This document shows, one piece after another, positions 11,962 to 63,640 of a DNA stretch of 64,000 nt. The notes under the pieces are model-generated. The model did no database searches and was not told where the DNA came from. It saw only the letters and a list, made by a program, of their open reading frames with translations. The stretch's first letter is position 1. Each line of letters starts with the position of its first letter. Made by a program: the position numbers and the translations under genes. The stretch spans positions 744,001-808,000 of the forward strand of contig NZ_CP032757.1 of the NCBI RefSeq assembly GCF_003641185.1, given 5' to 3'. The DNA is from Lactiplantibacillus pentosus. GTDB taxonomy: Bacteria; Bacillota; Bacilli; Lactobacillales; Lactobacillaceae.

Positions 11962-12796
11962 TTATCATGAATCATGATTAAATCATGGTGTTTTCTGAGT
12001 TCAAGCCCGCCAGCTGAGACCCGCTGGAAACAGTGCGAATTTGCGTAAACCTGCTGTTGTGGATGCTTCCTACGCCGGCTTTCAGGTATTTCTGACAACG
12101 CTGGAACGCGATGGACACAGATTTAAGCCGACAAACCACGTCTTAAATACTGATCTTCCACTAACCAAGCACACAACGCTTGCTAAGTGGAATTTCATCG
12201 CTGAGCATTGTCAGAAACACCTTCCAGCCGGGGATGGTATTCGAAAGGCAGACATGTGCGGCCCCAACATTTTGTTGGATTAGTCGTTGATTCCCTGGTA
12301 CAGGGCCATTTTGACTTTAACTGTCAGACCGACTCCAACATATAGCAATACTTTTTACCAATGCTTTAAGGTTCCTGACAAACAGCTTCACTTAGCTTGT
12401 CAGAATCTTCTTTAGTCGTTTGAGATAGCAAAGTTTCGAATTATACACAAAGGCTATTTTATCGACTAAATTCAAAACTAGTGTCTGTTGAAATTAGTGA
12501 ATCATATCCAAGTAATCTGATCAGTACTAAAATGCCATAAAACAGCATCAATACTGATCAAAAAGTTTGCCTGAAGGGCCGGTCACTTAATATCCAGTGG
12601 TCAATTGTACCAAGATAGCTGGGCGTTCATCCGTCATTCGAGCGGTTTCCCGACCGGAGGGGCTGGCTGACAATGCTCAAATCGATGTCCGCCCTGTTCC
12701 AGCGTTGTCAGCCAGCCCCGGAGGTCGGAATCGGACGCGCATCGGCTGACGAACAGGAATCCACCAACTGGCACATTTTAATCATCATGAATGCAA
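11962..12796. repeat. Structured intergenic repeat, copy A (835 bp)
   Basis: First of four related elements (others at 30642, 48790 and 62850). Its ends carry inverted termini of the type ATGATTAAAA-ygtgcca. The 5' domain (12075-12231) folds back through CCGGCT...AGCCGG, CTGACAA (12092-12098) with TTGTCAG (12208-12214), and GCGATG (12108-12113) with CATCGC (12196-12201). The 3' domain (about 12645-12745) has GGGGCTGGCTGACAA with its complement, but the two inner hairpins present in copies B-D are missing at 12675-12685. No open frame is conserved among the copies. It fills the gap between the CPBP gene and groES. Confidence 0.8.
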
Positions 12797-12847
12797 AATA
12801 ATAACAAGCACAACACATATTAACACGATAATACCCATTATAGTCGA

Positions 12848-12947
12848 TTTGACATTCTTTGACTAATAATTGACAAATCACTTGCAATCTCAAATTAAAA
12901 TGATATAGTTGACAATGTAATTAGCACTTGAGGTTCAGGAGTGCTAA
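12848..12947 (+). promoter_or_regulatory. groES promoter with CtsR-like box and CIRCE operator
   Basis: CIRCE: TTAGCACTT (12921-12929), 9 bp, GAGTGCTAA (12939-12947), one mismatch from perfect; it binds HrcA. The promoter just upstream is TTGCAA (12882-12887), 16 bp, extended -10 TGA-TATAGT (12904-12909). Further upstream TTTGACATTCTTTGACT (12848-12864) matches the reverse complement of the CtsR heptad repeat with one mismatch. This implies both heat-shock repressors act here. Confidence 0.85.
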
Positions 12948-12971
12948 AAAAGAATAAATGGAGGGATTCAC

Positions 12972-13256
12972 GTGTTAAAACCATTAGGAGATCGCGTTAT
13001 CTTGCAACAACAAGAAGAAGAAGAACAAACCATTGGCGGTATTGTTATCGCCAATAACGCTAAGGAAAAGCCCCAAAGCGGCAAGGTTGTTGCCGTCAAT
13101 GACGGTCGTGTTTTAGATAACGGGACAAAAGTTGACCCCAGCGTGAAGGTCGGCGATCAAGTCTTATTTGACAAGTATGCCGGTACTGAAGTGAAGTACC
13201 AAGGTGATAAGTACTTGGTATTGCACGAAAAAGATATCGTTGCAATCGAAGACTAA
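12972..13256 (+). CDS. groES: Co-chaperonin GroES
   Basis: Seven-subunit lid of the GroEL folding chamber, 94 aa. It starts with [13 protein letters not shown], has the mobile loop [21 protein letters not shown] (about residues 15-35) and ends [12 protein letters not shown], all standard. The start is GTG at 12972, with a GGAGGG site 7 nt upstream. It is the first gene of the groES-groEL operon, 55 bp before groEL, under the CIRCE and CtsR-like sites. Confidence 0.98.
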
Positions 13257-13302
13257 TCCATTTAAAGGACGCAATTTAAAATAAACTAAATTCATGAGGT
13301 GA

Positions 13303-14937
<1,635 letters not shown>

Positions 14938-14952
14938 ACAAATCGTAACATT

Positions 14953-14984
14953 AAGCACTTACTCGGCTGAGTAAGTGCTTTTTT
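14953..14984 (+). terminator. Terminator after groEL
   Basis: AAGCACTTACTC and GAGTAAGTGCTT form a perfect 12 bp stem with a 4 nt loop and a T6 tail. Confidence 0.92.
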
Positions 14985-15021
14985 AATGCTGTTGGGGTGC
15001 AAATCAACTAAAATATGGGTA

Positions 15022-15188
15022 TTGATTTATCCATAATGGAGCGGTAGGATTAGTCGTTAACGCAAAACAGGGGTACCTGGTCGTGCCCGGTAGTTTTAAC
15101 TGGTAGTATTAATCAAGCTAAAGTAGTAGAATCTACTTTGACTTAGCTTACTTGGGATAATTATTTTGGACATAAAGGAGTTATTATC
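15022..15188 (+). promoter_or_regulatory. Promoter and structured 5' leader of the kimA-like gene
   Basis: TTGATT (15022-15027), 17 bp, TAGGAT (15045-15050) is a plausible promoter, leaving a leader of about 130 nt. The leader contains AAGCT-AAAGTAG-loop-CTACTTT-gactt-AGCTT (about 15115-15149), a nested hairpin with no T tract, and a GGTACC-containing segment near 15074. Bacillus kimA is controlled by a c-di-AMP riboswitch, but I could not fit this leader to that consensus. Confidence 0.45.
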
Positions 15189-17024
15189 ATGTGGCGTTAT
15201 TTAAAACGGTTAGTTATTGGGAAACCGTTAAAAACCATGGACGAGGGTGGGCAAGCGCTCACTAAGTTCAAGGCCCTGGCGCTGCTGTCGTCAGATGCGC
15301 TATCATCAGTGGCTTATGGTACTGAACAGATTACGACGGTCTTAATTACACTTTCAGCGGCTGCTTTGATGTATCAATTGTATGTCGCGGCGTTAGTGCT
15401 GGTCCTACTGTTTGCCATCACGATGTCGTACCGGCAAATTATCCGGGCTTATCCATCTGGCGGGGGCGCCTACGTGGTTGCTAGTACTAACTGGGGTCGT
15501 CCAGCTGGACTAGTGGCTGGGGGCTCGCTGCTTGTCGACTACATGCTGACGGTGGCGGTTTCGGTGACTTCAGGTACTGAAGCCATTACGTCGGCAGTTC
15601 CGGCGTTAGCCAATTACCAAGTGCTGATTGCGGTACTGATCGTGATCGCAATTATGGCGCTGAATCTGCGTGGAATGCGTGAATCCGCATCATTCTTAAC
15701 GTTCCCCGTATACTTTTTCATTATTATGATTATTGGCATGATTCTGTGGGGCATTATGAATATTGCGAGTGGTAACTTAACTTACCATGCATCCGCCGCT
15801 GTTGGGGCGCCCGTACAAGGTATGACGCTAGTACTGTTCCTGCGAGCCTTCTCCTCTGGGTCGTCATCACTGACCGGGGTTGAAGCCATCAGTAACGCGG
15901 TGCCAAACTTTAAACGGCCTAAGCGTAAAAATGCGGCCAATACGCTTGCCATTATGTCGCTCGTGTTGGCAGTATTCTTTGGTGGAATCACTTATTTGAG
16001 TTACTACTTGGGAATCAAACCGCAAGCAGACAATACCGTGCTGTCACAAATTGCGACGGCGGTCTTTGGTCACGGCTTGTTCTACTACTTGCTCCAATTA
16101 GCTACTGCCTTGATTTTAGCGGTTGCCGCTAACACCGGTTTTTCCGCGTTTCCAATCTTGGCGTACAACTTGGCGAAGGATAAATTCCTGCCACATGCTT
16201 ACATGGACCGGGGCGACCGGCTAGGCTACTCTAATGGGATTATCTCGTTAGCCGTCGGGGCGATCGCGCTCATCTTTATTTTCCATGGTAAGACGACGCT
16301 CTTGATTCCGTTATACGCGGTCGGGGTGTTCGTGCCGTTTACGTTATCTCAATCCGGGATGATCGTGCACTGGTTGCGCGAACGTGGTCAATGGTGGTGG
16401 ATGAAAGCCGCTGTTAACTTCCTCGGTGCCTTGATTTCGTTAGGACTAGTGGTCTTCTTATTCTTGCTCCACTTCGGCAACGTTTGGCCATACCTAATCG
16501 TGATGCCACTGTTGCTTTACATGTTCTTCCGGATTCACGTGCATTATAAACGAGTAGCTGCCCAGTTGCGGGTAGTCGCAAAGGAAAAGGCCGCTATTCA
16601 TGATTATGATGGGGCCACGGTGATCGTGCTCGTCTCAAATGTCACGCGGGTAACGGCCCAAGCGGTCAACTATGCGCGTTCGATTGGGGATTACGTGATT
16701 GCGATGCACGTGTCTTTCGATGAAAATCCTGAAAAGGAACATAAAACGGCCGCGGAATTCAAAGAAACCTTCCCGGATGTTCGGTTCGTCGATATTCATT
16801 CGTCGTATCGTTCGATTGCCACGCCAACGTTACGCTTCTGTGATGTGATTGCCAAACGGGCGGCGGAACGGAACTTCTCTACTACCGTTTTAGTCCCACA
16901 ATTTGTGCCTAAAAAGCCTTGGCAGAATATTCTGCATAACCAGACCAGCTTACGGCTGCGCGCGGTATTAAATTCGCGTGAAAATATTATTGTGTCGACT
17001 TATAACTACCATTTAAAAGAATAG
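15189..17024 (+). CDS. KimA/YdaO-like potassium importer (APC/KUP superfamily)
   Basis: Membrane protein of 611 aa with about 12 transmembrane segments followed by a soluble C-terminal domain of some 150 residues (from about 460). The N-terminus KRLVIGKPLKT...LSSDALSSVAYGTEQI and the motifs YPSGGGAYVVAS, GGSLLVDYMLTVAVS and GVEAISNAVPNF closely resemble my recollection of B. subtilis KimA (YdaO), a proton-coupled potassium importer inhibited by c-di-AMP. Annotation pipelines often call such proteins amino-acid permeases. Monocistronic, with AAGGAG ahead of the ATG and a terminator behind. Confidence 0.82.
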   Translation: MWRYLKRLVIGKPLKTMDEGGQALTKFKALALLSSDALSSVAYGTEQITTVLITLSAAALMYQLYVAALVLVLLFAITMSYRQIIRAYPSGGGAYVVASTNWGRPAGLVAGGSLLVDYMLTVAVSVTSGTEAITSAVPALANYQVLIAVLIVIAIMALNLRGMRESASFLTFPVYFFIIMIIGMILWGIMNIASGNLTYHASAAVGAPVQGMTLVLFLRAFSSGSSSLTGVEAISNAVPNFKRPKRKNAANTLAIMSLVLAVFFGGITYLSYYLGIKPQADNTVLSQIATAVFGHGLFYYLLQLATALILAVAANTGFSAFPILAYNLAKDKFLPHAYMDRGDRLGYSNGIISLAVGAIALIFIFHGKTTLLIPLYAVGVFVPFTLSQSGMIVHWLRERGQWWWMKAAVNFLGALISLGLVVFLFLLHFGNVWPYLIVMPLLLYMFFRIHVHYKRVAAQLRVVAKEKAAIHDYDGATVIVLVSNVTRVTAQAVNYARSIGDYVIAMHVSFDENPEKEHKTAAEFKETFPDVRFVDIHSSYRSIATPTLRFCDVIAKRAAERNFSTTVLVPQFVPKKPWQNILHNQTSLRLRAVLNSRENIIVSTYNYHLKE

Positions 17025-17038
17025 TAACTTGATATTGA

Positions 17039-17063
17039 AACCCGGTATAACTGCCGGGTTTTT
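17039..17063 (+). terminator. Terminator after the kimA-like gene
   Basis: AACCCGG and CCGGGTT stem with an 8 nt loop and T5 tail. Confidence 0.88.
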
Positions 17064-17240
17064 AATTTTGTGTCATAATATGAGTAACGATGGTTATAAT
17101 TTAAGGGTTTGATTAGCACGTGACGGTTCAAATGTGAACGAATTGTGTTGCCTTTCCTAAGTTTTGGTGAAGCAAGTTGTCAAGCGTCATTGGGATTTGT
17201 ATAATTATCATAATAAGAGTGAGAAGGGGGTTGCGCACAA

Positions 17241-18338
17241 ATGATCAGGTTTGAAATTTTAGTATGCCTAGTGGCGACCATGATAGTTTCTGCAATCTTG
17301 ACGCCGTTTGTGCGGAAGCTCGCATTTAAAATCGGGGCGGTGGACAAACCGAATGTCCGGCGGGTCAATAAAATACCGATGCCAACAATGGGTGGCTTAG
17401 CGATTTTTATTTCCTATACCGTCGGGACAACTGTCCTCTATCTGATGCACCAATTTCCTAGTCGCATCTTTTTCGCGCTATTAGGTGGCGAGCTGATTAT
17501 TATTGCGACTGGAATTATCGACGATATTTATGAACTGAAACCCCGTCAGAAGATGTTGGGTATCACATTAGCGGCACTTGAAGTTTACTTTATCGGTGGC
17601 ATCCGAATGACGACCTTTACCTTTCCGTTGCTGGGATTGATTCATTTCCAATGGTTAAGTTTGCCGGTGACGCTGTTATGGATTTTAGCCATCACCAATG
17701 CGGTGAACCTAATTGATGGTCTGGACGGCTTAGCGACCGGAGTCTCAATCATTTCACTCACGACGATGGGGATCATCGGGTTATTCTTCTTGAATGCGAA
17801 TATGTTTGTCTCGTTGCTGATTTTTACCCTAGTTGCAGCGATGATGGGCTTCCTGCCGTACAATTTCTTCCCAGCAAGAATTTATCTGGGGGATACGGGT
17901 TCCTTGTTCATCGGTTTCATGACGGCGGTGTTCTCGTTGTTTGGCCTCAAAAACGTGACGTTGATTTCCGTTGGGATTCCAGTGATGATTTTAGGCGTGC
18001 CAATCACGGATACGGTCTACGCGATGATTCGCCGGATCTTGAATAAAAAGCCGATTTCGCAGGCGGATAAACATCACCTGCACCACCGGCTGATGCAATT
18101 AGGATTGACCCATCGACAAACCGTCATGGTCATTTACGGGATTGCATTGATTTTTTCGTTCATTTCATTGCTTTACCCGATTTCATCGATCTGGGGTTCA
18201 GTTCTCCTGACGATTGGCTTGTTACTGGGACTGGAACTCTTCGTTGAAGCAATTGGCTTAGCTGGCGATAATCGTCAGCCGTTACTCGATTGGATCAAAC
18301 GAACCGTTGCCCGGCTGACGTCCAAGACTAATCATTAA
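17241..18338 (+). CDS. tagO: Undecaprenyl-phosphate GlcNAc-1-phosphate transferase (TagO/WecA family)
   Basis: Membrane enzyme that starts wall teichoic acid and related glycans by moving GlcNAc-1-P from UDP-GlcNAc to undecaprenyl phosphate. The 365 aa product has about 10-11 membrane segments and the family motifs IIDDIYELKPRQK (catalytic DD, about residue 93), NAVNLIDGLDGLATG (about 153), PARIYLGDTGSLFIG (about 213) and HHLHHRL (about 275). A GAAGGGGG site precedes the ATG. It stands alone in this window; the polymer genes it serves lie elsewhere. Confidence 0.93.
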   Translation: MIRFEILVCLVATMIVSAILTPFVRKLAFKIGAVDKPNVRRVNKIPMPTMGGLAIFISYTVGTTVLYLMHQFPSRIFFALLGGELIIIATGIIDDIYELKPRQKMLGITLAALEVYFIGGIRMTTFTFPLLGLIHFQWLSLPVTLLWILAITNAVNLIDGLDGLATGVSIISLTTMGIIGLFFLNANMFVSLLIFTLVAAMMGFLPYNFFPARIYLGDTGSLFIGFMTAVFSLFGLKNVTLISVGIPVMILGVPITDTVYAMIRRILNKKPISQADKHHLHHRLMQLGLTHRQTVMVIYGIALIFSFISLLYPISSIWGSVLLTIGLLLGLELFVEAIGLAGDNRQPLLDWIKRTVARLTSKTNH

Positions 18339-19739: not shown

Positions 19740-19743
19740 CCGC

Positions 19744-30606: not shown

Positions 30607-30641
30607 CTAACCGGTGATACGCATTGTAGGCGTTATTCTTT

Positions 30642-31580
30642 AGCATTAAAGATAATTAAAACGTGCTATTTTCTAAGTTCAAGAGCCGCCAGCTGAGACC
30701 CGCTGGAACAGTGCGAGTTAGCGTAAACTTGCTGTCGTGGAGACGTCCTAGGCCGGCTTCCAGGCATTCTGGGCAATGGCCGGAACGTGGTGGACACAGA
30801 TTTAAGACGACAGCCCACGTCTTAAATACTGGTCTTCCACTAACCAAGCCAAAAACGCTTGCTAAGTGGAATTTCACCACTGGGCCTTGCCCAGAATACC
30901 TTCCAGCCGGGATGGTATTCGAAAGGCAGACATGTGTGGACCCAACATTTTATTGGATTAGTCTTTGATTCCTTGGTACACGGGGACTTTGATATTGAAC
31001 TTTCAGATCAGTTTCTAACAATCGTTAAACTTTCTTACCCAATGTTTTAGCTTTTCGAATCAGCGACTCCACGGTACTTGTCAGAACTTTTCCTAGTTGT
31101 CTGAGATAGCAAAATCTTGGATTCTCAACGAAGATAATCCTATCGATTAAGTCCAAGACCAGTTGCTATTGAAGTTGGTGGCATTAAGATGGGTGAATAA
31201 TATTTGCTAATCTTCTCAGCAGTTAAATGCCATGAGTCATCATCAATACCGATTAAGAGCTTTCTTGAAGGGCAAGCCAACTAATATTCAGGGGTCAATT
31301 GCACCCAAATAGGTGGACGTTCATCCGCCATTCGAGCGGCTTCCCGACTGGAGGGGCTGGCTGACAATGCTCAAGGGCGAAATTCTTCTTGTCCGGGCGG
31401 GTTCTCCGGGCTAGAAGAAGACTCGTATTTGAAATTGCGCAGTGGTTCTCTGCGTGAGTTCAAATCGATGTCCGCCCTGTTCCAGCGTTGTCAGCCAGCC
31501 CCGGAAGTCGGATTAGGAAGCGCATTGGCTGACGCACAGGACGCCAACTTGGCACGTTTTAATCATGATTCATGATAAAT
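30642..31580. repeat. Structured intergenic repeat, copy B (about 940 bp)
   Basis: The most complete copy, plus orientation, between phoR and its likely terminator. Left end: ATTAAAACGTGCTA near 30655. Right end (complement): ATGATTAAAACGTGCCA ending near 31573. 5' domain: CTGGGCAA (30769-30776) pairs with TTGCCCAG (30887-30894), GTGGTG (30787-30792) with CACCAC (30875-30880), enclosing two hairpins. 3' domain: GGGGCTGGCTGACAA (31353-31367) pairs with its complement (31488-31502) around two hairpins, one built on CTTCTT/AAGAAG and one on ATTTGAA/TTCAAAT. A central core of about 400 bp separates them. No coding capacity is conserved. Confidence 0.82.
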
Positions 31581-31652
31581 CAACTAACACATTGTGTCCG
31601 TGATATTAATGGCGCCCACTGACAAGTCACCATTAAAAATGATTCAAAACAT

Positions 31653-48707: not shown

Positions 48708-48789
48708 GGTTGCATTCAGTCACTGAAGGGCTGACTGACGAGCAACAAGTCAGCTCATACAACTAGTACGCGTTGTGCTGGCTATGATT

Positions 48790-49832
48790 GAGCATCAAAG
48801 ATGATTGAAGCATGCTATTTTCTAAGTTTAAGGGCTCCCAGCTGAGACCCGCTGGAAAAAGTGCGAGTTATCGTAAACTTGCTGTGGTGGATGCTTCCTA
48901 GTCCGGCTTCCAGGTATTTCTGACAACGCTGGAACGCGATGGACACAGATTTAAGCCGAAAGCCCACGTCTTAAATACTGGTCTTCCACGTTAGCTGCAG
49001 TATAGATGAAATGTGTTCGGGTCAGACTGGGACTTCCGGTTAGCTACGCCAGAACGCCAAGCGGAAATGCACCGCTTAACGCTCTAGCTAGGCTAATCCT
49101 CAGTCCCAACCCGTCTGAACCTCACACTCTAAAAGCCGCTGAGCATTGTCAGAAATACCTTCCAGCCGGGATGGTATTCGAAAGGCAGACATGTGCGGGT
49201 CAACATTTTGTTGGATTTGTCGTTGGTTACTTGGTACACAGTCACTTTGATATTCAACTGTCAGATTAGTCTTTAATGATAACTAAGGTTCCTTACTTAT
49301 ACTGTCAGACAAGCGACCTCACTGAACTTGTCAGAATCTTCTTCAGTCGTTTGGGATAACAAAATCTCCGATTATAAGCGAAGGTAATTTTATCGACTAA
49401 ATTCAAGACTAGTTACCATTGAAATTTGAGGCATTGAGATGAGTGAGCAATATCTGGATAATCCTCTCAGTACTCAAATGCCACAAAGCATCACCGATAC
49501 CGATTGAAAGTTTGCCTGAAGGTCCAGTCACTAAATATTCAGTGGTCAATTGCACCAAGTTAGGTGGCCGTTCATCTGCCATTCGAGCGGGTTCCCGACT
49601 GTAGGGGCCGGCTGACAATGCTCAAGGGCGAAGTTCTTCTTGTCCGGGTGGTCTTCCCGGGCTAGAAGAAGACTCGTATTTGAAATTGCGCAGTGATTTT
49701 CTGCGTGAGTTCAAATCGATGTCCGCCCTGTTCCAGCGTTGTCAGCCGGCCCCGGAAGTCGGAATAAGGAGATCACCGGCTGACGAACAACAATCCAAAC
49801 AATTAGCATGCTTTAATCATTATCCATGACAA
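48790..49832. repeat. Structured intergenic repeat, copy C (about 1.04 kb)
   Basis: The longest copy, plus orientation, inside the EPS cluster. Its termini read TGATTGAAGCATGCTA (left, near 48803) and, complemented, TGATTAAAGCATGCTA (right, near 49818), so both ends carry GCATGC where copies B and D carry ACGTGC. 5' domain: AGGTATTTCTGACAA pairs with TTGTCAGAAATACCT. Its third arm (48990-49135) is a different, longer hairpin segment shared in part with copy D. 3' domain: GGGGCCGGCTGACAA (49604-49618) pairs with its complement (49739-49753); copy B has GGGGCTGG/CCAGCCCC instead. Confidence 0.82.
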
Positions 49833-51133
49833 TTAACGAGTTGGTACAGATAACCATGATGGATGAGGGGGAACGCATCATTAGTGTTTTAGATTATTTT
49901 TTGTTTTTAGCGGTGTTGTCGATTTGGGGCATCCTCGTCGTGAACGTGATTTTGACGATTGCGGGTTATGTTAATTATTTACAAAAGGTGCGGCAGCCTA
50001 AGCCGCAATTGCCAGCGCAGGTCCCGTTCGTTTCAATCATGGTGCCGGCCCATAATGAGGGCATCGTCATTGTTAAAACGTTACAAGCCTTACTGAACTT
50101 CGACTATCCCAAGGACCGCTATGAAATTATTATTATCAACGATAATTCGGATGATAACTCAGCTGAATTACTAGCTGAGGTGCAGTCGCTCTATCCGCAT
50201 CGCAATCTCAAGGTTATCAATACCGATAAGACTAACGGTGGTAAGGGCAAGTCGAACGCACTGAATATTGGGCTCAAGCAGGCGCGGGGCACGTTGATTT
50301 CAATCTATGATGCCGACAATACGCCTCAGCGCAGTGCGTTGCGATACTTAGTGGCTGAGTTAATGCAGGACTCCCAGTTGGCCGCGGTCATTGGTAAATT
50401 TCGGACTCGGAATAAGAACGCGTCACTGCTGACAAGGTTTATTAATATCGAGACATTATCTTTTCAATGGATGGCGCAAGCGGGGCGCGAGAAGTTGTTC
50501 AAACTCTGTACGATTCCCGGTACGAATTATGTGATTCGCCGCGATATTTTGGAAGAAATTGGCGGCTGGGACGTTAAGGCCTTGGCGGAGGATACCGAAA
50601 TCAGCTTTCGCGTTTACCGAATGGGGTATCGGATCCGGTTTCAACCGCTCGCCGTCACGTGGGAACAGGAACCACAGACGCTGGATGTCTGGTTTCACCA
50701 ACGGACGCGCTGGGTCAAAGGCAACATTTACGTGATTTTAAAAAATGCGCGACTGTTGTTTACCAAATCGGGGCGACCGATTCGATTTGATTTGCTGTAT
50801 TTTTTGGCCATCTATTTCTTACTGATGACATCACTAATTTTGTCCGATAGCATGTTTGTGCTTTCGGTTGCTGGCATCGCACACTCGAACTTAGTCGGGT
50901 TCAGTAATGCACTGTGGGTAATGGCCGTTATCACGTTTGTCATTAGCACCTTTGTCACGATTACGACGGAAAAGGGTGAAATGACGCTGGCCAATTTACT
51001 CATTATTATTTTTATGTACGTTGTTTATAGTCAAATGTGGCTCGCGGTAGCCGCACATGGAATGGTGGGGTATGTTCGTGAACAAGTTTTTCATCAACAA
51101 GCAAAATGGTATAAGACCAAACGCTATCAATAG
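49826..51133 (+). CDS. Processive family-2 glycosyltransferase (EPS synthase, BcsA/PgaC-like)
   Basis: Membrane glycosyltransferase of up to 435 aa. Two N-terminal membrane segments, then the GT-A domain with VPAHNEG, INDNSDD, YDADNTP (DxD), LAEDTE (TED) and HQRTRW (QxxRW), and three to four C-terminal segments. These motifs mark a processive beta-glycan synthase; there is no PilZ domain. With BcsB-like and GH8-like neighbours a cellulose-like glucan is likeliest; PNAG is the alternative. The start is unsure: ATG 49826 lies in the repeat C terminus without a ribosome site, and ATG 49856/49859 also lack one. Confidence 0.88.
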   Translation: MTINELVQITMMDEGERIISVLDYFLFLAVLSIWGILVVNVILTIAGYVNYLQKVRQPKPQLPAQVPFVSIMVPAHNEGIVIVKTLQALLNFDYPKDRYEIIIINDNSDDNSAELLAEVQSLYPHRNLKVINTDKTNGGKGKSNALNIGLKQARGTLISIYDADNTPQRSALRYLVAELMQDSQLAAVIGKFRTRNKNASLLTRFINIETLSFQWMAQAGREKLFKLCTIPGTNYVIRRDILEEIGGWDVKALAEDTEISFRVYRMGYRIRFQPLAVTWEQEPQTLDVWFHQRTRWVKGNIYVILKNARLLFTKSGRPIRFDLLYFLAIYFLLMTSLILSDSMFVLSVAGIAHSNLVGFSNALWVMAVITFVISTFVTITTEKGEMTLANLLIIIFMYVVYSQMWLAVAAHGMVGYVREQVFHQQAKWYKTKRYQ

Positions 51134-56487: not shown

Positions 56488-56531
56488 ATTTTTGTAAGCA
56501 CTAACAAATATCGGAATTGGAGATGGTTTTT

Positions 56532-58259
56532 GTGAGTTGGCAAGATACTTATAATACCTGGAAAAACCAAGCGACACTTGAAACAAGTTTAAAACAAGAA
56601 TTAACGGCGATGGCTGGTGATGATTCAGCCTTAGAAGATGCCTTTTATGAACCAATGGAATTCGGAACTGCCGGCATGCGCGGGGTCCTCGGACCTGGAA
56701 TCAACCGGATGAATATTTATACTGTTCGTCAGGCAACGGAAGGGTTAGCCCGGTTCATGGATACGCTACCCGCCGATGTTAAGGAACGCGGCGTGGCGAT
56801 CAGTTTTGATTCACGGCATCATTCTGAAGACTTTGCCCACGAATCCGCACGGGTCTTGGGGCAACACGGCATCAAGTCATACGTGTTTGAAAGCTTGCGG
56901 CCAACTCCAGAATTGTCCTTCACGGTACGGCATTTACACACCTATGCCGGCATTATGATCACGGCTAGCCACAATCCTAAGCAGTATAACGGCTATAAGA
57001 TCTATGGTGAAGATGGTGGTCAAATGCCACCAAAGGAATCCGATTTGATTACGTCATACATCCGGAAAGTTGACGACGTGTTCGCCATTGCGGTTGCTGA
57101 TGAACAACAATTATTAGCTGACAAGACTGAAACGATTATCGGTGATGACGTCGACCAAGACTACTTGGCAAAGGTCAAGGAAGTCACGATCAACCAAAAA
57201 TTAGTCGATGAAGTTGGCAAAGACATGAAGCTGGTCTTCACGCCACTGCACGGGACTGGTCGGATGCTTGGTGAAAAAGCCTTGAAGAACGCTGGGTTCA
57301 AAAACTTCAGTGTCGTTAAGGAACAAGCAGTCGCTGACCCTGACTTTTCAACGGTCAAGTTCCCGAACCCTGAATTCCCAGAAGCCTTCAAGATGGCGAT
57401 CGATTTAGGGAAAAAGGAAGGTGCCGATGTATTGATTGCGGTCGACCCAGATGCTGACCGGTTGGGGACAGCTGTTCGGCAACCAGATGGCGAATACGTC
57501 TTATTGACTGGGAACCAAATTGCGGCCGTCTTATTACACTACATCTTGCAAGCCAACAAGGATGCAGGGACCTTACCAAAGAACGCTGCCGCGGTCAAAT
57601 CGATCGTTTCCAGCGAATTTGCGACGAAGGTTGCGGCTTCCTATGGTGTTACGATGATCAACGTCTTAACTGGATTTAAGTATATCGCTGAACAAATCGA
57701 ACACTTTGAAGCCACCGGTGAACACACCTACATGTTTGGCTTTGAAGAAAGCTATGGCTATTTGATCAAGCCATTCGTCCATGACAAGGATGCCATCCAA
57801 ACGACGGTCTTATTAGCCGAAGTTGCCGCTTACTACAAGCAACAAGGTAAGAACCTCTATGACGGGCTTCAAGACCTATTTAAGGAATATGGCTACTTCC
57901 GTGAACAGACGACTTCTGAAGAATTTGACGGTGTCGGTGGTAGTGACAAGATTGCAGCCTTAATGACCAAGTTCCGTAGCGAAGCCCCAACGGACTTTGC
58001 TGGTTACGCGGTTCAAGGGACGGAAGACTTCCAGAGCCAAACGGAAAGCTTTGCGGATGGTCACACGGCCCCAATCGATTTACCACAAGCCAATGTTTTG
58101 AAATATCACTTAGAAGACGGCACTTGGATCGCCATTCGGCCTTCTGGGACGGAACCTAAGATCAAGTTCTACATTGGTACCTTGGGCGACACCCTCGATG
58201 AAGCCAATGATAAATTAGCTAAGTTTGAAGCTGCAATTCAAGCGTTTATCAAAGAATAA
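56532..58259 (+). CDS. pgm: Phosphoglucomutase (alpha-D-phosphohexomutase family)
   Basis: Interconverts glucose-6-P and glucose-1-P, the step before GalU. The 575 aa product has the phosphoserine loop ITASHNPKQYNGYK (about residues 139-152), the metal-binding VDPDADRLG (about 298-306), GFEESYGY and the phosphate-binding RPSGTEPKIKFY near the C-terminus. GTG at 56532 is used: GGAG at 56519-56522 is 9 nt upstream, while the in-frame starts at 56517 and 56523 overlap that site. Confidence 0.96.
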   Translation: MSWQDTYNTWKNQATLETSLKQELTAMAGDDSALEDAFYEPMEFGTAGMRGVLGPGINRMNIYTVRQATEGLARFMDTLPADVKERGVAISFDSRHHSEDFAHESARVLGQHGIKSYVFESLRPTPELSFTVRHLHTYAGIMITASHNPKQYNGYKIYGEDGGQMPPKESDLITSYIRKVDDVFAIAVADEQQLLADKTETIIGDDVDQDYLAKVKEVTINQKLVDEVGKDMKLVFTPLHGTGRMLGEKALKNAGFKNFSVVKEQAVADPDFSTVKFPNPEFPEAFKMAIDLGKKEGADVLIAVDPDADRLGTAVRQPDGEYVLLTGNQIAAVLLHYILQANKDAGTLPKNAAAVKSIVSSEFATKVAASYGVTMINVLTGFKYIAEQIEHFEATGEHTYMFGFEESYGYLIKPFVHDKDAIQTTVLLAEVAAYYKQQGKNLYDGLQDLFKEYGYFREQTTSEEFDGVGGSDKIAALMTKFRSEAPTDFAGYAVQGTEDFQSQTESFADGHTAPIDLPQANVLKYHLEDGTWIAIRPSGTEPKIKFYIGTLGDTLDEANDKLAKFEAAIQAFIKE

Positions 58260-58305
58260 CGATTAGCCTGCGCAGGCTACCTGCCTGATTTTAATTAGAG
58301 CCATC

Positions 58306-58358
58306 AAAATAACACCCGCTAGTTTCAGTAACTTGCTGAGACTAACGGGTGTTATTTT
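58306..58358. terminator. Terminator between pgm and the second EAL gene
   Basis: AAAATAACACCCG and CGGGTGTTATTTT form a long stem with an inner TAGT/ACTA and TCAG/CTGA extension. A 16 bp palindrome (58264-58279) lies just after the pgm stop. Confidence 0.88.
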
Positions 58359-58436
58359 GGATTCGATAATAGCAGTTGTTGGAAATCGAGTAAAAAAACT
58401 GGATGACTGACGCAGCTATTTGTGTGGTGGTGACGA

Positions 58437-59150
58437 TTAAGCTTGAGCGAATGGTAATTCAAAGTTGATGGGATCGCCAGGGAGCCGTAATAATTGCGGC
58501 TTGCCATAGTAGTAGCCTTGTCGTAAATTAATGTCAAAATGACTACTTAGGCGGTCGTCATCCTCGTCTTCGATGCCTTCGAGAATTAAACGCAACCCAT
58601 ATTCACTACTGATGGCACGCCAGAAATGTAACTTCTGTTGGATTTTGGGGTCCTTCATATCGCTGCGGAAATTCTGCAAGGCAAACTTTAATTCGGAAGC
58701 TAATGGCAGAATCTCCTGAATGCTCTTGAAATCATTGATCCCGGTGCCCACGTCGTCTAGTGAAAGCTGCATACCATGTTCAATGAACCCCCGTAAGTGT
58801 GGGATCAACTGCGTATCTGGGTACTGCTTAGGCCCGCGTTCCTCAGTCAATTCGACGACGAGCTTGGCAGGGTAGAGTTGGACTTGACTCTGAATAATGG
58901 CTTTAGCGACCGTGGTGTCCATCAGTTGTTCACGACTGATATTGACCGCACAGTAGCGGACCTTGAGTGCCAGAATCTTCGTCGTGGCAATCAATAAGTC
59001 TGAGGTCGTCTTGGAACTAATGGCCGCAAAGGACTCTGGTAGGCGCCAACCATCTGGCGTCAGCTGTTTAATGAGCAGTTCATAACCATAGACGGTATTA
59101 TTCAATAAGTTTAATTGGGGTTGTACGAAGTAGCGGTAAATTGGTTCCAT
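58437..59150 (-). CDS. EAL-domain protein, probable c-di-GMP phosphodiesterase (second copy)
   Basis: Stand-alone EAL domain of 237 aa, clearly paralogous to the gene at 41850. The same active-site positions are kept: E in GYELLIK, N in AVNIS, E in VELTEE, DD in LDDVGTG, K in ELKFALQNF, E in LILEGIE and Q in LRQGYYYGKP. A 10-residue C-terminal tail is extra. ATG at 59150 is preferred because the AAAAGG site is too close to the ATG at 59159. Divergent from the second oxidoreductase gene. The first copy lies 16 kb away across the EPS cluster. Confidence 0.88.
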   Translation of the reverse strand: MEPIYRYFVQPQLNLLNNTVYGYELLIKQLTPDGWRLPESFAAISSKTTSDLLIATTKILALKVRYCAVNISREQLMDTTVAKAIIQSQVQLYPAKLVVELTEERGPKQYPDTQLIPHLRGFIEHGMQLSLDDVGTGINDFKSIQEILPLASELKFALQNFRSDMKDPKIQQKLHFWRAISSEYGLRLILEGIEDEDDDRLSSHFDINLRQGYYYGKPQLLRLPGDPINFELPFAQA

Positions 59151-59215
59151 AAGTTCCATCGCCTTTTATAGTAAGTTTTAAGTCATTGAATCGTTTTAAA
59201 AATAACCAAATCGCT

Positions 59216-59232
59216 GTATACTCTAAGTATAC
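59216..59232. promoter_or_regulatory. Palindrome in the EAL2/oxidoreductase-2 divergent region
   Basis: GTATACT-CTA-AGTATAC, a perfect 7-3-7 palindrome. Each arm contains TATACT, so it offers a -10 hexamer on both strands, or it may be an operator. No good -35 is seen. A second imperfect inverted repeat, TTAACCA/TGGTTTAA, follows at about 59251-59270. Confidence 0.5.
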
Positions 59233-59303
59233 GTCAACCTAAATGAATGTTTAACCATTCTGTGGTTTAATTTTAATATTTTATGAAAGCTGTGGTCGAA
59301 TCA

Positions 59304-60662
59304 ATGAAAGTTGCTATTATCGGCTGTACACATGCGGGGATTGCCGCCATGCGGCAAATTTTGAAATACTATCCAGGCACTGAAATTACCGTGTATGAGC
59401 GGCACGCGACGATTTCGTATATGTCCTGTGGTACTTATCTACACTTAGGGGGAACCATTAAGGATTTGGACCAGGCGCTATACGCTAATCCTGATGAGTT
59501 CAGTAAGCAAGGCGTCCAAATGCGGATGCAACATGATGTGATCAAGGTTGATGCGACAAAACACACCATTTTGGCCCAAAATTTACAAACCAAGACGATG
59601 GAAACGGACCATTATGACAAATTGGTTATGGCGACTGGATCACTGACCGCGATTCCGGCAATTCCAGGTGTCGAGAACCCGAAAGTGATGCTGTGCAAGA
59701 CTTGTGAACAGGCTCAGCAACTTTATGAGGCTGCTCAGCATGCCAAACAAATTGCCATTGTGGGCGGCGGTTATGCCGGGGTGGAGCTTGCTGAGGGCTA
59801 TATCAAGTCTGGGCACGCTGTCACCTTATATCAACGAGGGCCACAGCTCATTGATGAATACTTGGATGCCAATCTGGCGAACAAGGTTGAGACCTTATTG
59901 ACGAGTCACGGCATTGATGTGCGCACCAATGCCCAAGTCACTGGGTTTCAAGATACGCCTGACAATCGCTTGCAAGTGACGACGGCCGATTCTGAAACTA
60001 TCTATGATATGGCCGTCATTTGTCCCGGAGTCATTCCGCAATCAGAATTGCTGGCCGGGCAGGTCAACCGCACGAAGCAGGGTGCCATCGTGACGGACCG
60101 CTACATGGGGACTTCGAATCCTGACATTTTTGCGGCCGGTGATGTAACGGAGGTCAAATTTAACCCCACCAAAGATCACGCCTATATGCCATTAGTTTCG
60201 CACGCGATTCGTCAAGGCGCCTTAGCGGGGATCAATATTTTTGACAAACGGCTCGGTTCGATTGGCACACAGGCGACGACCGGCATGTTGATTTTTGGGC
60301 AGACGATTGCTTGCACCGGGATGACGCTCACGGCAGCCAAAGCCGCCCATTTTGAAGCCAAGACGGCCGTTTATGAAGGCAATTATCGACCAGACTTCAT
60401 GCCAACGACTGCCAAAATCACCATCGAATTGGTGTATGATCAGCAAACCCGTAAAGTACTAGGCGGCCAATTGATGAGTGCCCACGAAGTCTCGCAATCA
60501 GCCAACACGTTGTCAGTGATTATTCATAACGGTAACACGATTGATGAGCTGGCCTTTATGGATATGCTCTTCTCACCGAATTTCGATGAACCGTTCAATT
60601 ATCTGAACTTGGCGGCTCAGGCCGCAGTCGATCAGGAACATGGGTATCGACGGAATAATTAA
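59304..60662 (+). CDS. NADH peroxidase/oxidase-type flavoprotein (second copy)
   Basis: FAD/NADH flavoprotein of 452 aa, paralogous to the one at 43080. GCTHAGIAAMRQIL keeps the His of the active site, SYMSCGTYLHLGG the redox Cys, IVGGGYAGVELAEGY the NADH fold and FAAGDVTEV the second FAD motif; the ends FNYLNLAAQAAVDQEH align with those of the first copy. The start at 59304 matches the other copy; the ATG at 59283 is possible, and neither has a strong ribosome site. It forms its own transcript, ending at a strong terminator. Confidence 0.88.
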   Translation: MKVAIIGCTHAGIAAMRQILKYYPGTEITVYERHATISYMSCGTYLHLGGTIKDLDQALYANPDEFSKQGVQMRMQHDVIKVDATKHTILAQNLQTKTMETDHYDKLVMATGSLTAIPAIPGVENPKVMLCKTCEQAQQLYEAAQHAKQIAIVGGGYAGVELAEGYIKSGHAVTLYQRGPQLIDEYLDANLANKVETLLTSHGIDVRTNAQVTGFQDTPDNRLQVTTADSETIYDMAVICPGVIPQSELLAGQVNRTKQGAIVTDRYMGTSNPDIFAAGDVTEVKFNPTKDHAYMPLVSHAIRQGALAGINIFDKRLGSIGTQATTGMLIFGQTIACTGMTLTAAKAAHFEAKTAVYEGNYRPDFMPTTAKITIELVYDQQTRKVLGGQLMSAHEVSQSANTLSVIIHNGNTIDELAFMDMLFSPNFDEPFNYLNLAAQAAVDQEHGYRRNN

Positions 60663-60690
60663 GGCCGTCTTGATTTAGATGATCGTATTT

Positions 60691-60724
60691 AAAAAAGTTC
60701 ACGTCGCGTTGACGTGAACTTTTT
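60691..60724. terminator. Bidirectional terminator after oxidoreductase 2
   Basis: AAAAAAGTTCACGTC and GACGTGAACTTTT form a perfect stem with a 5 nt loop, between convergent genes. Confidence 0.92.
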
Positions 60725-60728
60725 GTGG

Positions 60729-61286
60729 TTAAGCATAATCGTTGGGGTCGGCTGCTAAGGGCTGGTACGCGTCCATGTCTGCGTCTCGATAGTCCCACCA
60801 TTCGTTAACGTAGCCGACAAAGCCAGCGGCGCGCATCGCTTCGTCTAAACGTTGATAATACTGGTCTTGTTCAGCCGTCCGTGGTGCATCACGGTGTGCG
60901 CGAGCGGTAAAATCATCAAAGGGCGTTGGCATCGGTAGGTCACTGCCGTCTGCGTTGACTAGGGTCAAATCGAGCGTGACGCCTTTTTGATGGCTAAAAT
61001 TCGGATTTGGGCGCGCAACGAATTCGGGGTCAGGGTAGACTTCAAACAAACGTTTTTGCGCACTAACGGGGCGGTAGGCATCCCAGATTTTGAGCCGGTA
61101 ACCTTCCTGTTTGACGATGGCACTGGCCTGCGCGAGTTTGTGAGCAGTGCCAGTCCGAACGATTGCCGTCGTAAAGTCGTAAATAACTTGATGCGTGAAA
61201 TTGTCAGTGGTGGCGTAGCGTAGGTCAACAAGGATATCGGGGTCTAAACGTTGGACATTGGTAAAACCGGTGAATGCTTGCTCCAT
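60729..61286 (-). CDS. aad: VanX-like D-Ala-D-Ala dipeptidase (Aad)
   Basis: M15-family zinc dipeptidase of 185 aa. L. plantarum has a described VanX-like enzyme, Aad, that removes D-Ala-D-Ala so that peptidoglycan precursors end in D-lactate; this is very probably that gene. DAYRP (Arg72), FSHQKGVTLDLTL (His99 and Asp106 as zinc ligands) and NEWWDY (Glu162 base) line up with VanX. The third ligand, His in the usual EWWH, reads Asp165 here (codon GAC). Monocistronic, minus strand. Confidence 0.88.
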   Translation of the reverse strand: MEQAFTGFTNVQRLDPDILVDLRYATTDNFTHQVIYDFTTAIVRTGTAHKLAQASAIVKQEGYRLKIWDAYRPVSAQKRLFEVYPDPEFVARPNPNFSHQKGVTLDLTLVNADGSDLPMPTPFDDFTARAHRDAPRTAEQDQYYQRLDEAMRAAGFVGYVNEWWDYRDADMDAYQPLAADPNDYA

Positions 61287-61642
61287 GGTGTGGCCTCCTC
61301 ATATAAGTTACCGTTATTGTAGCTGATTTCGCTGCTTTTTACTGGAAAAAGGATTGTCGGTTTGACCACAAACTTTTAACTAGCTTTCGACAGGGCGCCC
61401 TGATAAGATGTAAAGCGGTGTGTATTTATGATTATTTTTGTATAACGTAATTTGACATCGTTATGAAGCAACCTTAAATGCAGTCAGTTGTACTTAGCTG
61501 AGGACCGCTCGAAGCCGAACAAACTAGTGGCCATAGTGGTCGACGTGCATACGCTAGTTGCCAGTTGAAACGGCACGTATCCAGGCTAATTAACAACAAT
61601 TCAAACGATGCCAGCGATAATTAACAGAAGAGGTGAGGGCAT
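61287..61642. other. Intergenic region between aad and the MFS gene
   Basis: 356 bp with no convincing gene or terminator. It must hold the divergent promoters, but I see only AT-rich stretches (61420-61455) without good hexamers. The end holds the ribosome site AGAGGTG at 61628-61634. Confidence 0.4.
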
Positions 61643-62839
61643 ATCGATCGACAAACACGACGAGCCATCTTAATTTTAGTATTTAGTGAATTTTTAGTCT
61701 GCTTAGGGATTAGTTTAGTGATTCCAGTGATGCCGTTTATTAAAAACGAGCTGCATTTAACCGCAACGGATATGGGGATCATGAACGCGTTATTTGCGTT
61801 GGCACAGTTTGTGGCTTCGCCGATTATCGGGCGGGTGTCTGATAAACTCGGTCGTAAGCCGGTTCTGGCCACGGGACTTTTTCTATACATGGTGTCAGAA
61901 GTGTTGTTTGCGTTAACCAATCAACTGTGGGTGTTCAACATTTCGCGGATCGTCGGTGGCCTGTCAGCTGCGATGGTCGTACCGACCGCAATGGCGCTTG
62001 CTTCAGATATCACGACCAAACGGCAACGGGCCCGCGTGATTGGCTGGTTGTCAGCGGCGTTCAGTGGTGGCTTGATCCTAGGCCCTGGGATTGGTGGTAT
62101 TTTGGCGGGAATCAGTTACAAAACCCCATTTTGGGTCGCGGGTGCGCTCGGCTTATTAAGCGCGATTGTGCTGATCATTCTATTGCCAGCTGACCGGCAA
62201 ATCGACCCAGACCGTGAAGCCAAATCGGCTGCCGCAACGCCTGAACATCATCCGATGACGCGGGCGTTCTGGACGGTGCCAATTATTATTTTGTTCACGA
62301 TGATATTAGTGTCATCCTTTGGTCTGCAAGGGTTTGAAAGTATCTATAGTATCTACGTCAACGAAGTCTTTCACTTTAGTCTGAGCAACATTGCGTTAGT
62401 GCTGACGCTCAACGGGCTGATTTCGTTGTTCCTGCAAGTCGCACTTTTCGACACGTTCGTGCAGCGCTGGGGCGAACGGCGCGTCATCCGGGTATGTTTT
62501 GCAGCCGCGGCGATTTGCACGATTTGGATCACTCAAGCCCATTCCAAACTCGCGGTGATGATTGCCACACTCGTCATCTTCTCAGCCTTCGACTTGCTAC
62601 GGCCCGCCATAACGACGCTGCTGACGAAAGCTAGTGAAACGAATCAGGGCCTGATCAACGGACTGAACATGTCTTTGACGAGTATTGGTAACGTGGTAGG
62701 ACCAATCATGTCTGGAATGCTATTAGATATGAATTACCACTATCCATACCTAGTCGTTGCGGGATTCTTGATTGTGTCTTATCTGATGGCCTTCATGTTG
62801 CGCTTACCAGGACAGGTGCAGTCCCATCAGCACGTCTAG
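61643..62839 (+). CDS. MFS drug-efflux-type transporter, probable ATC start
   Basis: Twelve-segment major facilitator of 398 aa if read from ATC 61643. NELHLTATDMGIMNALFALAQFVASPIIGRVSDKLGRKPVL contains motif A (GRVSDKLGRKP), and LILGPGIGGILAG is motif C of drug antiporters. The first usual start codon, GTG at 61718, would remove most of the first membrane segment (RRAILILVFSEFLVCLGISLVIP). The frame is open upstream to ATC GAT CGA CAA, and AGAGGTG (61628-61634) lies 8 nt before that ATC. So either ATC is the start, or the start was lost by mutation. Substrate unknown. Confidence 0.85.
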   Translation: MDRQTRRAILILVFSEFLVCLGISLVIPVMPFIKNELHLTATDMGIMNALFALAQFVASPIIGRVSDKLGRKPVLATGLFLYMVSEVLFALTNQLWVFNISRIVGGLSAAMVVPTAMALASDITTKRQRARVIGWLSAAFSGGLILGPGIGGILAGISYKTPFWVAGALGLLSAIVLIILLPADRQIDPDREAKSAAATPEHHPMTRAFWTVPIIILFTMILVSSFGLQGFESIYSIYVNEVFHFSLSNIALVLTLNGLISLFLQVALFDTFVQRWGERRVIRVCFAAAAICTIWITQAHSKLAVMIATLVIFSAFDLLRPAITTLLTKASETNQGLINGLNMSLTSIGNVVGPIMSGMLLDMNYHYPYLVVAGFLIVSYLMAFMLRLPGQVQSHQHV

Positions 62840-62849
62840 AACTCGAATT

Positions 62850-63640
62850 TGTCATGAATTATGATTAACACGTGCCAAGTTGGCGTCCTGTTCGTCAGCC
62901 AATGCGCTTCCTAATCCGACTTCCAGGGCTGGCTGACAACGCTGGAACAGGGCGGACATCGATTTGAACTCACGCAGAAACCCACTGCGCAATTTCAAAT
63001 ACGCGTCTTCTTCTAGCCCGGGAAACCCGCCCGGACAAGAAGAATTTCGCCCTTGAGCATTTGTCAGCCAACCCCTCCAGTCGGGAAGCCGTTCGAATGG
63101 CGGATGAACGGCCACCTAACTTGGTGCAATTGACCACTGAATGTTAGGGCCTTGTCCTTCAAGCAAGCTTTGAATTGGTATCGCTGATGCTTTATGACAT
63201 TTGAGTACTGAGAAGATTACTGAATATAATTCACTAATATCAACGGACACTAGTCTTGCATTTAGTCGATAAAACGACCTTCGCTTATAATTCAAGATTT
63301 TGCTATCTCAGACGACTAGATAAAATTCTGGCAAGTTCAGTAAAGTCGCTTGTCAGAGACCTTAAAACATGAGTAAGAAAGGTTAGTGATTGTTAGAAAA
63401 CAGTCTGACCCGAACACGTTTCGTCCATATCGCAGGCAACGTGAAAGACCAGTATTTAAGACGTGGGCTGTCGGCTTAAATCTGTGTCCACCACGTCACG
63501 GCCATTGCCCAGAATGCCTGGAAGCCGGCATAGGACGTCGCCACAACAGCAGTTTTACGTAAATTCGCACTGTTTCCAGCGGGTCTCAGCTGGCGGTTCT
63601 TGAACTTAAAAAATGGCACGTTTTAATCATTTTTGATGCT
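62850..63640 (-). repeat. Structured intergenic repeat, copy D (about 790 bp, inverted)
   Basis: Same family as A-C but in minus orientation. Termini: ATGATTAACACGTGCCA (62860-62876, its right end) and, complemented, ATGATTAAAACGTGCCA (near 63615-63631, its left end). The 3' domain is complete, with both inner hairpins (62930-63075); its outer stem uses G-T pairs (GGGGTTGG with CCAGCCCT). The 5' domain has the first half only: its third arm starts like that of copy C (63401-63443) and then joins the core directly, so the closing strand is deleted. It lies between the MFS gene and a terminator at 63721. Confidence 0.82.

What the first reader, a model, noticed from the sequence alone, without database searches (positions are those of the whole stretch)
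11962..63640. A family of four large structured intergenic repeats (A-D) with no recognised identity
Copies at 11962-12796, 30642-31580, 48790-49832 and 62850-63640 (inverted) share long stretches such as AGCTGAGACCCGCTGGAA, GTCTTAAATACTG and ATGTCCGCCCTGTTCCAGCG. They have terminal inverted repeats (ATGATTAAAACGTGCCA type), no conserved reading frame and no transposase. They total about 3.6 kb, or 5.6 percent of the window. Options: a large non-autonomous mobile element, a family of large structured RNAs, or nucleoid or recombination sites.
Basis: partly seen in the sequence, partly recalled or inferred. Interest (0 to 1): 0.85.

Follow-up and report, generated by a model that had tools for sequence, protein, structure and literature searches.

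The report
Invertible structured repeats in lactobacilli
About 150 copies of a one-kilobase non-coding element, carrying two mirror-image folded segments between transposon-like ends, sit between the genes of this lactobacillus; they resemble a little-studied repeat reported in 2009, but their mobility, flipping in place and spread across the family look new.

Summary
In detail: A-D are four copies of one ~970-bp non-coding family with about 150 copies or fragments in this 3.67-Mb genome. It is probably not unnamed: Cousin et al. 2017 (PMC5643018, passages seen) describe 'L. plantarum supermotifs' (Wels et al. 2009, not held) of 800-1000 nt, many copies, intergenic, transcribed, cruciform. No supermotif sequence was available, so identity rests on description.
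Beyond those passages: (1) the ends are IS982-type inverted repeats with 8-bp target duplications, so this is an oversized non-autonomous transposon; no IS982 transposase in this genome passes the family cut-off. (2) The cargo is an inverted pair of a ~150-nt three-way-junction unit with very strong covariation and a wobble-pair bias that gives it a strand (RNA or single-stranded DNA). (3) A model of the unit hits 66 of 350 Lactobacillaceae genomes (11 of 40 genera) but only the own genome of 398 in the class; no Rfam match. (4) At 37 sites shared with strain EGD-AQ4, 14 cassettes lie inverted, six of them (window copy B included) clear flips with breakpoints inside the terminal repeats; some have changed content. 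(5) Conserved columns change less (2.2%) than the flanks (6.8%) or the ends (14.4%).
Function is unknown; structure acting in read-through transcripts is my best guess.

The parts
11943..12818 (+). copy A; lacks most of the two arms of the 3' three-way junction (70 nt of that unit remain); present at the same site in EGD-AQ4 in the same orientation; site empty in 18 of 19 other species of the genus
11935..11942 (.). left target-site duplication of copy A (ATTAACAC)
12819..12826 (.). right target-site duplication of copy A (ATTAACAC)
30619..31597 (+). copy B, full length; lies inverted at the same site in EGD-AQ4 (L205, 91% identical once turned)
30742..30907 (-). copy B, 5' structured unit (sense on the minus strand; placed by alignment columns)
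   Evidence: same arrangement found by the model in L268
31349..31507 (+). copy B, 3' structured unit (three-way junction, sense on the plus strand)
30619..30666 (+). copy B, left terminal inverted repeat (outer part IS982-type)
31549..31597 (-). copy B, right terminal inverted repeat
48768..49854 (+). copy C, long form with a ~110-bp longer segment after the 5' unit; right end decayed, limit approximate
49600..49758 (+). copy C, 3' structured unit
62832..63660 (-). copy D; lacks part of the middle (consensus positions about 223-385)
62920..63079 (-). copy D, 3' structured unit (one of the 45 sequences of covariance model R1)

Best explanation
A-D are copies of an oversized non-autonomous transposon, very probably of the L. 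plantarum 'supermotif' type. SHOWN from sequence: ends of IS982 type and 8-bp target duplications; a non-coding cargo made of two copies of one ~150-nt three-way-junction unit in opposite orientation, each with its sense strand reading outward; at least six cassettes turned round in place relative to a related strain, with breakpoints inside the terminal repeats; content exchanged at other shared sites; fewer substitutions in the conserved columns than in the flanks, and more in the ends. INFERRED: an IS982 transposase moved the cassette in the past; the unit works as RNA in transcripts that read across the intergenic gap, and because the units are mirror images a read-through transcript from either side carries one correctly folded unit near its end, so flipping does no harm; the unit, not transposition, is what selection now keeps.
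For: IS982 ends: nine IS982 elements of the genus were looked at; two, L169 (G004) and L174 (G016), match the 17-bp end pattern with 0 mismatches at both ends, share 19-20 bp with the repeats and show no significant internal similarity; both have a stop in the transposase frame. Elements with open frames (L167, L168, L170, L171) have 1-2 mismatches per end. In the own genome the best of 11 sub-threshold IS982 matches is a transposase C-terminus on the second contig, ending at such a repeat. Target duplications: of 45 copies (of 115) with both ends recognisable, 8 match at >=7 of 8 bases allowing a shift of up to 2, 0.19 expected from shuffled flanks; L338 of G011 has an 8-bp pair. Empty site of copy A: 18 of 19 species other than G000 and G016 have the flanks within 100 bp of each other. 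Structure: 57-pair three-way junction, 13 pairs with double changes among 45 own copies; over 89 model matches 97.2% of cells pair, 67.7% shuffled, 34-44% slid, 56 of 57 pairs with changes on both sides. Strand: 3' unit G-U 440 / A-C 20 on its sense strand (102 sequences), 121/94 in the other strand's own fold; the 5' unit folds better on the opposite strand. Inversion: 14 of 37 shared sites inverted, 21 not, 2 unclear; in the six inverted pairs at 91-95% identity 11 of 12 outer ends stay with their flank. Constraint: with columns classed from 74 copies outside the pairs, 105 of 4846 conserved positions differ (2.2%) in 17 pairs whose flanks differ by 6.8%; lower than the flanks in 16 of 17, and in 34 of 36 when all alignable pairs are taken. 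Transcription and stability of supermotifs: reported second-hand (PMC5643018).
Against: No expression data here. No recurrent promoter-like site: at most 3 of 109 copies share one, with a simple consensus scan. No strand bias relative to flanking ORFs (in element orientation 26 ++, 31 --, 26 convergent, 11 divergent; 38 of 132 not scored), which does not favour a dedicated RNA gene. G-U bias could also arise for a single-stranded DNA hairpin, and it is weaker elsewhere: 188 G-U to 46 A-C across genera, 849 to 541 in the Watson-Crick-majority pairs of the whole element, with one A-C-majority mismatch site, 293-718. Taken whole, the 3' unit differs at 4.6% and the 5' unit at 6.5% in the 17 pairs, so the 5' unit is no slower than the flanks (6.8%); the constraint shows in the conserved columns only. 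Variable columns (13.9%) exceed the flanks, so conversion between copies contributes. Only 45 of 115 copies keep both ends well enough for the duplication test. Eight of the 14 inverted pairs are only 80-85% alike, close to random copies, and may be replacements. EGD-AQ4 is a draft, so some inversions or content swaps could be assembly errors, though exact inverted repeats in the terminal 80 bp of the six clear pairs are 11-28 bp.
Confidence: 0.6

Rival explanations
1. A family of dedicated large RNA genes (as the supermotif description implies): each copy has its own promoter and makes a ~900-nt trans-acting RNA; the transposon ends are only the way it spread.
For: Whole-element fold of 230 pairs over 109 copies, with pairs between the two halves; supermotifs described as transcribed, stable RNAs.
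Against: No recurrent promoter-like site in 109 copies; the two units are sense on opposite strands, so one RNA cannot carry both in the favoured sense; many relatives in other species are single units with about 130-200 nt of similarity.
Confidence: 0.15
2. The unit is a single-stranded DNA hairpin, a substrate for a recombinase or HUH-type transposase (as REP units are for theirs; recalled), and inverted pairs and inversions follow from that.
For: Inverted doublets and singlets in several genera; inversion at shared sites; no orientation rule relative to genes; strand-specific folding also fits one DNA strand.
Against: No recurrent neighbouring recombinase gene seen around 298 loci (judged by eye); in the plantarum group ends and duplications are those of an IS982-type IS; supermotifs are reported as transcribed.
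Confidence: 0.15
3. Dead MITE-like elements; structure and identity are kept by gene conversion and by template-switch repair of palindromes, without any function.
For: Copies exchange content: 27 of 37 orthologous partners are not the top match in EGD-AQ4 and 10 rank below fifth, by summed bit score, which is confounded by duplicate loci and truncated partners; double changes with few G-U intermediates across genera; units taken whole are not clearly slower than flanks.
Against: Conserved columns change at 2.2% against 6.8% in flanks; a 22:1 G-U to A-C ratio in the 3' unit is not expected of DNA palindrome repair; unpaired motifs look fixed across genera (by eye).
Confidence: 0.1

Closest known systems
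L. plantarum supermotifs (LPSMs; Wels et al. 2009, J Bacteriol 191:3420; not held, known here only through passages of PMC5643018)
   Same: 800-1000 nt, many copies, intergenic, cruciform-like, non-coding, L. plantarum
   Different: Said not to occur in other Lactobacillus species; here the structured unit is found in 11 of 40 Lactobacillaceae genera sampled. IS982-type ends, target duplications, in-place inversion and the inverted-pair make-up are not in the passages seen; whether the 2009 paper has them is unknown.
IS982-family insertion sequences, e.g. ISLpl4 of L. plantarum (PMC7335449, passages seen: ~1 kb, AC ends; ISLpl4 985 bp, 8-bp duplication)
   Same: Outer ~20 bp of the inverted repeats; AC ends; 8-bp duplications; total length
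   Different: No transposase gene and no significant internal similarity
Type II MITEs of bacteria (review PMC10969869, passages seen: 50-500 bp)
   Same: Similarity to an IS confined to the ends; no gene; intergenic; transcript predicted to fold
   Different: Twice the usual size; cargo conserved and covarying; cargo also exists without these ends
REP/REPIN and BIME elements (recalled, no call)
   Same: Inverted pairs of a structured unit, dispersed between genes, singlets and doublets
   Different: Unit is ~150 nt and branched, not a short hairpin; no associated transposase gene seen beside it
Large ornate bacterial RNAs (GOLLD, ROOL, OLE, HEARO; names from PMC5643018 and search listings)
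   Same: Large folded non-coding segments, some in lactobacilli
   Different: No Rfam match for the window or copy B; high copy number; paired inverted units

Membership tests
L. plantarum supermotif (LPSM) | 800-1000 nt, intergenic, many copies | tested here: met
   consensus 973 bp, about 150 copies or fragments, between ORFs
L. plantarum supermotif (LPSM) | cruciform-like secondary structure | tested here: met
L. plantarum supermotif (LPSM) | sequence match to a published supermotif | not testable with these tools
   Wels 2009 not held; no sequence available
L. plantarum supermotif (LPSM) | transcribed | not testable with these tools
   no expression data
L. plantarum supermotif (LPSM) | restricted to L. 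plantarum | tested here: not met
   structured unit in 66 of 350 Lactobacillaceae genomes; elements with the outer ends seen clearly in G000, G016 and G011, in 0 of 77 loci from other species
MITE mobilised by an IS982-type IS | terminal inverted repeats shared with an IS982 element | tested here: met
MITE mobilised by an IS982-type IS | target-site duplication of the right length | tested here: met
   8 of 45 copies >=7/8, 0.19 expected; four of nine IS copies show 7, 8, 8 and 9 bp by eye, the rest unclear
MITE mobilised by an IS982-type IS | small size (50-500 bp) | tested here: not met
   106 of 115 near-complete copies are 809-1119 bp; a few ~310-bp derivatives exist (L139, L144)
IS982 insertion sequence | own transposase gene | tested here: not met
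   own genome has 0 matches over the NF033520 cut-off
Known Rfam RNA family | match at gathering score | tested here: not met
REPIN/BIME | linked to a REP-associated tyrosine transposase | tested here: inconclusive
   no recurrent neighbouring gene, but no genome-wide search for such transposases was made

The most novel reading that the evidence does not exclude
A Lactobacillaceae-wide class of dispersed folded units (RNA or single-stranded DNA) that in the plantarum group has captured IS982 ends as mirror-image doublets, forming some 150 invertible cassettes per genome that flip at short terminal sites, swap content and are kept by selection on the folded unit: a new kind of invertible, RNA-bearing mobile repeat.
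Probability: 0.35. Interest if true: 0.85.

Novelty: new variant of a known kind. Interest (0 to 1): 0.62.

Why it matters
If right, an estimated 3-4% of a food-bacterium genome (copy number times typical length) is a mobile, invertible, structure-conserved repeat whose function I found no account of. The unit has a very clear covariation signal, has no Rfam match, and comes with a ready model; its spread over many genera and its flipping in place make function and mechanism directly testable.

Tried and rejected
Autonomous partner inside the family: none found; of 22 listed places with a terminal repeat outside known copies 20 were fetched: 16 held copies or fragments, two only an end, two nothing. 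Shared accessory gene: all-against-all comparison of ORFs around 298 loci gave, judged by eye, ordinary genes and spurious ORFs inside the element. Nucleoid or chi-like site: not tested. Phage origin: no match in 50,697 phage records for copy B or for a G287 unit, no exact 27-mer in viral contigs. Plasmids: pieces in 26 records for copy B, Lactiplantibacillus 19 and Ligilactobacillus 7; 10 records for an own-genome locus; none for the G287 and G225 units; two for the G338 unit. Inner terminal repeat as an old feature: seen in L278 and L288 of another genus, but these look like recent transfers of a G015-type segment, so dropped; both inner repeats occur in 2 of 77 loci from other species, both outer repeats in 0 of 77; in the own genome, at the same limit of 3 mismatches, 42 and 33 of 132 copies keep both. 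Insertion footprint of the single units in other genera: not resolved. Promoters. First constraint test (2.1% against 15.0%) classed columns on the same copies it scored; it was redone with columns from 74 other copies, with nearly the same result.

Paper searches (10 used): terms on MITE/IS982/Lactobacillus, repeats, REP, structured RNA, supermotif; only the listings were seen, except passages of PMC7335449, PMC5643018 and PMC10969869. That inversion, IS982 ends and wider spread are not in print is claimed only for these searches, which miss most subscription journals and the 2009 paper itself.

Rows dropped before counts: one search used 45 of 115 copies; one search reports 37 of 132 copies (the others lacked two flanks on one EGD-AQ4 locus; only EGD-AQ4 loci holding an exact 27-mer, or ten, had been fetched, so unshared sites cannot be counted); searches used 17 of these 37 (identity >=0.89), one search also 36; one search left out 38 of 132 and 4 of 60; one search kept 71 and 102 of 109; the 51 copies were picked by eye. 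A few of the 89 matches are the reverse strand of a unit already counted.
Full report
OBSERVATION. The window lies at 744001-808000 of a 3.62-Mb chromosome with one 49-kb contig besides. Genome-wide there are about 150 copies or fragments: 132 from two patterns with zero hits for the reversed control patterns, 16 more among 20 loci fetched for their terminal repeats, two more listed. The consensus is 973 bp; 106 of the 115 near-complete copies are 809-1119 bp, with block differences such as a longer segment after position 223 or loss of 747-833 as in copy A. In 60 random pairs the median identity is 79%.

MOBILITY. Both ends carry an imperfect ~48-bp inverted repeat, beginning ACGCNTTGTGCTAGTTA. 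In 45 of 115 copies both ends are recognisable; 8 of them have flanking 8-mers that agree at 7 or 8 positions, against 0.19 expected from shuffled flanks; copy A has a perfect ATTAACAC pair. The same outer bases end IS982-family insertion sequences of other species: of nine looked at, L169 and L174 match the 17-bp pattern exactly at both ends and share 19-20 bp, without significant internal similarity; both have a stop in the transposase frame; elements with open frames (L167, L168, L170, L171) differ at 1-2 positions per end. Four of the nine show duplications of 7, 8, 8 and 9 bp by eye. The own genome has no IS982 transposase over the family cut-off; the best of 11 weak matches is a C-terminal remnant on the second contig, ending at such a repeat. 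For copy A, 18 of 19 species other than G000 and G016 have both flanks within 100 bp of each other, i.e. an empty site (coordinates). An 8-bp duplication is also seen in G011 (L338). In the genus a 29-mer of the 3' unit (up to 3 mismatches) occurs 88 times in this genome and 71 times in G016 and in none of the 19 others; the covariance model below finds related units in 15 genomes of the genus.

STRUCTURE. Folding 109 copies together gives 230 pairs. The 3' unit (positions 720-878) is a three-way junction; among 45 diverse copies 13 of 57 pairs show double compensatory changes, in two subtypes. A covariance model from these 45 (R1) finds the same unit a second time in the element, on the opposite strand in the 5' half (L268: plus strand 1501-1659, 192 bits; minus strand 914-1061, 118 bits). 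So the element is a mirror-image pair, each unit reading outward. The strand is set by wobble pairs: 3' unit, sense-strand fold -140.8 with G-U 440 and A-C 20; other strand -124.8 with 121 and 94; 5' unit better on the opposite strand (-125.7, 121/28, against -115.1, 86/47). The bias is weaker across genera (188/46) and over the whole element (849/541 in Watson-Crick-majority pairs; 14 G-U-majority pairs against one A-C-majority mismatch site). Double-stranded cruciforms would show no such asymmetry; RNA or one strand of DNA would.

DISTRIBUTION. R1 at E <= 1e-5 hits 66 of 350 Lactobacillaceae genomes (11 of 40 genera), the own genome included, with at most eight candidates scored per genome and strict filters. 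In a sample of 398 genomes of the class at E <= 1e-4 only the own genome matches. In 62 loci searched again 89 matches were aligned; 56 of 57 pairs vary on both sides, 97.2% of cells pair, against 67.7% after shuffling and 34-44% when slid. In other species and genera the unit occurs singly or as inverted doublets, without both IS982-type ends (0 of 77 loci at up to 3 mismatches). The alignment is fitted to the model's structure, which favours pairing; the MAFFT alignment is not.

INVERSION AND EXCHANGE. EGD-AQ4 loci holding an exact core 27-mer, plus ten, were compared with this genome by flanks. Of 37 copies with both flanks on one EGD-AQ4 locus, 21 have the element in the same orientation, 14 inverted, 2 unclear. 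Six inverted pairs are 91-95% identical once turned (L035, L099, L111, L114, L130 and window copy B); in them 11 of 12 outer 24-bp ends still match the end on the same side, so the breakpoints lie inside the terminal repeats. For copy B the junctions can be read directly: the change falls in the inner repeat, around ATGATTAAAnCRTGC. The longest exact inverted repeat within the terminal 80 bp of these pairs is 11-28 bp, short for homologous recombination (recalled), which leaves site-specific or replication-linked inversion open. The other eight inverted pairs are 80-85% alike, and so are several pairs in the same orientation, little more than random copies; 10 of 37 orthologous partners rank below fifth among EGD-AQ4 loci (a ranking confounded by duplicate loci and truncation), so content is exchanged at some sites. 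At one site in another genus (G287 against G363) a single unit is also turned round.

SELECTION. Columns were classed by conservation in 74 copies that belong to none of the 37 pairs. In the 17 pairs of identity >= 0.89, conserved columns (>=95%) differ at 105 of 4846 positions (2.2%), intermediate at 9.3%, variable (<75%) at 546 of 3935 (13.9%); flanks differ by 6.8%. Conserved columns changed less than the flanks in 16 of 17 pairs, and in 34 of 36 when all alignable pairs are taken (one search gave much the same with columns classed on the scored copies). By region the ends differ at 14.4%, the 3' unit at 4.6%, the 5' unit at 6.5% and the rest at 8.3%, so a whole unit is at best modestly slower than the flanks and the constraint lies in its conserved columns. 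Conversion brings in variation at variable columns, so the fair comparison is with the flanks. Among 51 copies picked by eye for having both ends, departure from the majority base is 0.157 in the outer repeat, 0.180 in the inner, 0.207 in the middle, 0.099 in the 5' unit and 0.064 in the 3' unit. The folded units are thus better kept than the ends that transposition needs.

CONTEXT AND FUNCTION. Elements lie between ORFs: of 94 scored, 57 between co-directional, 26 between convergent and 11 between divergent ones, with no strand preference (ORFs of 90 codons or more, not annotated genes). No promoter-like site recurs (at most 3 of 109 copies). A mirror-image pair gives a sense unit to a read-through transcript from either side, which fits these facts; this is inference. 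The nearest published thing is the L. plantarum supermotif, described second-hand as stable, transcribed, intergenic, cruciform, 800-1000 nt, in many copies, and not found in other lactobacilli (PMC5643018). Membership is likely but untested by sequence.

CALIBRATION. Confident: family, copy number, structure, IS982-type ends. Fairly confident: inversion in place (one draft genome compared, six clear cases). Open: RNA or single-stranded DNA, what the unit does, what moves it outside the plantarum group.

Noticed in passing
L146 2330-2560 (second contig C2 of the own genome, about 21.8-22.1 kb): C-terminal remnant of an IS982 transposase ending at a terminal repeat of the family's type, near two other transposase-like ORFs (IS30- and IS3-like by eye).
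   Followed up: partly
window 49826-51133 and copy C: The listed ORF starts inside the right terminal repeat of copy C; the true start may be just behind the element, so copy C may lie directly at the 5' end of this gene.
   Followed up: no
L132, L133 (Ligilactobacillus salivarius plasmids): A ~430-bp piece of the element (consensus 495-936, 83-84% identical) lies just upstream of an ABC transporter gene, outside the genus.
   Followed up: partly
L135, L414-L417 (L. plantarum and L. paraplantarum plasmids): Five plasmids looked at carry the same 5' fragment of the element in one gene neighbourhood (a P-type ATPase gene beside it in the four records not cut there), apparently one insertion spread with the plasmid segment.
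   Followed up: partly
L278, L288: Two loci of another genus carry a copy with flanks like those of a G015 locus, apparently a recent transfer of a chromosomal segment.
   Followed up: partly
L139, L144: Deletion derivatives of about 310 bp that keep terminal repeats, i.e. ordinary-sized MITE forms of the same family.
   Followed up: no
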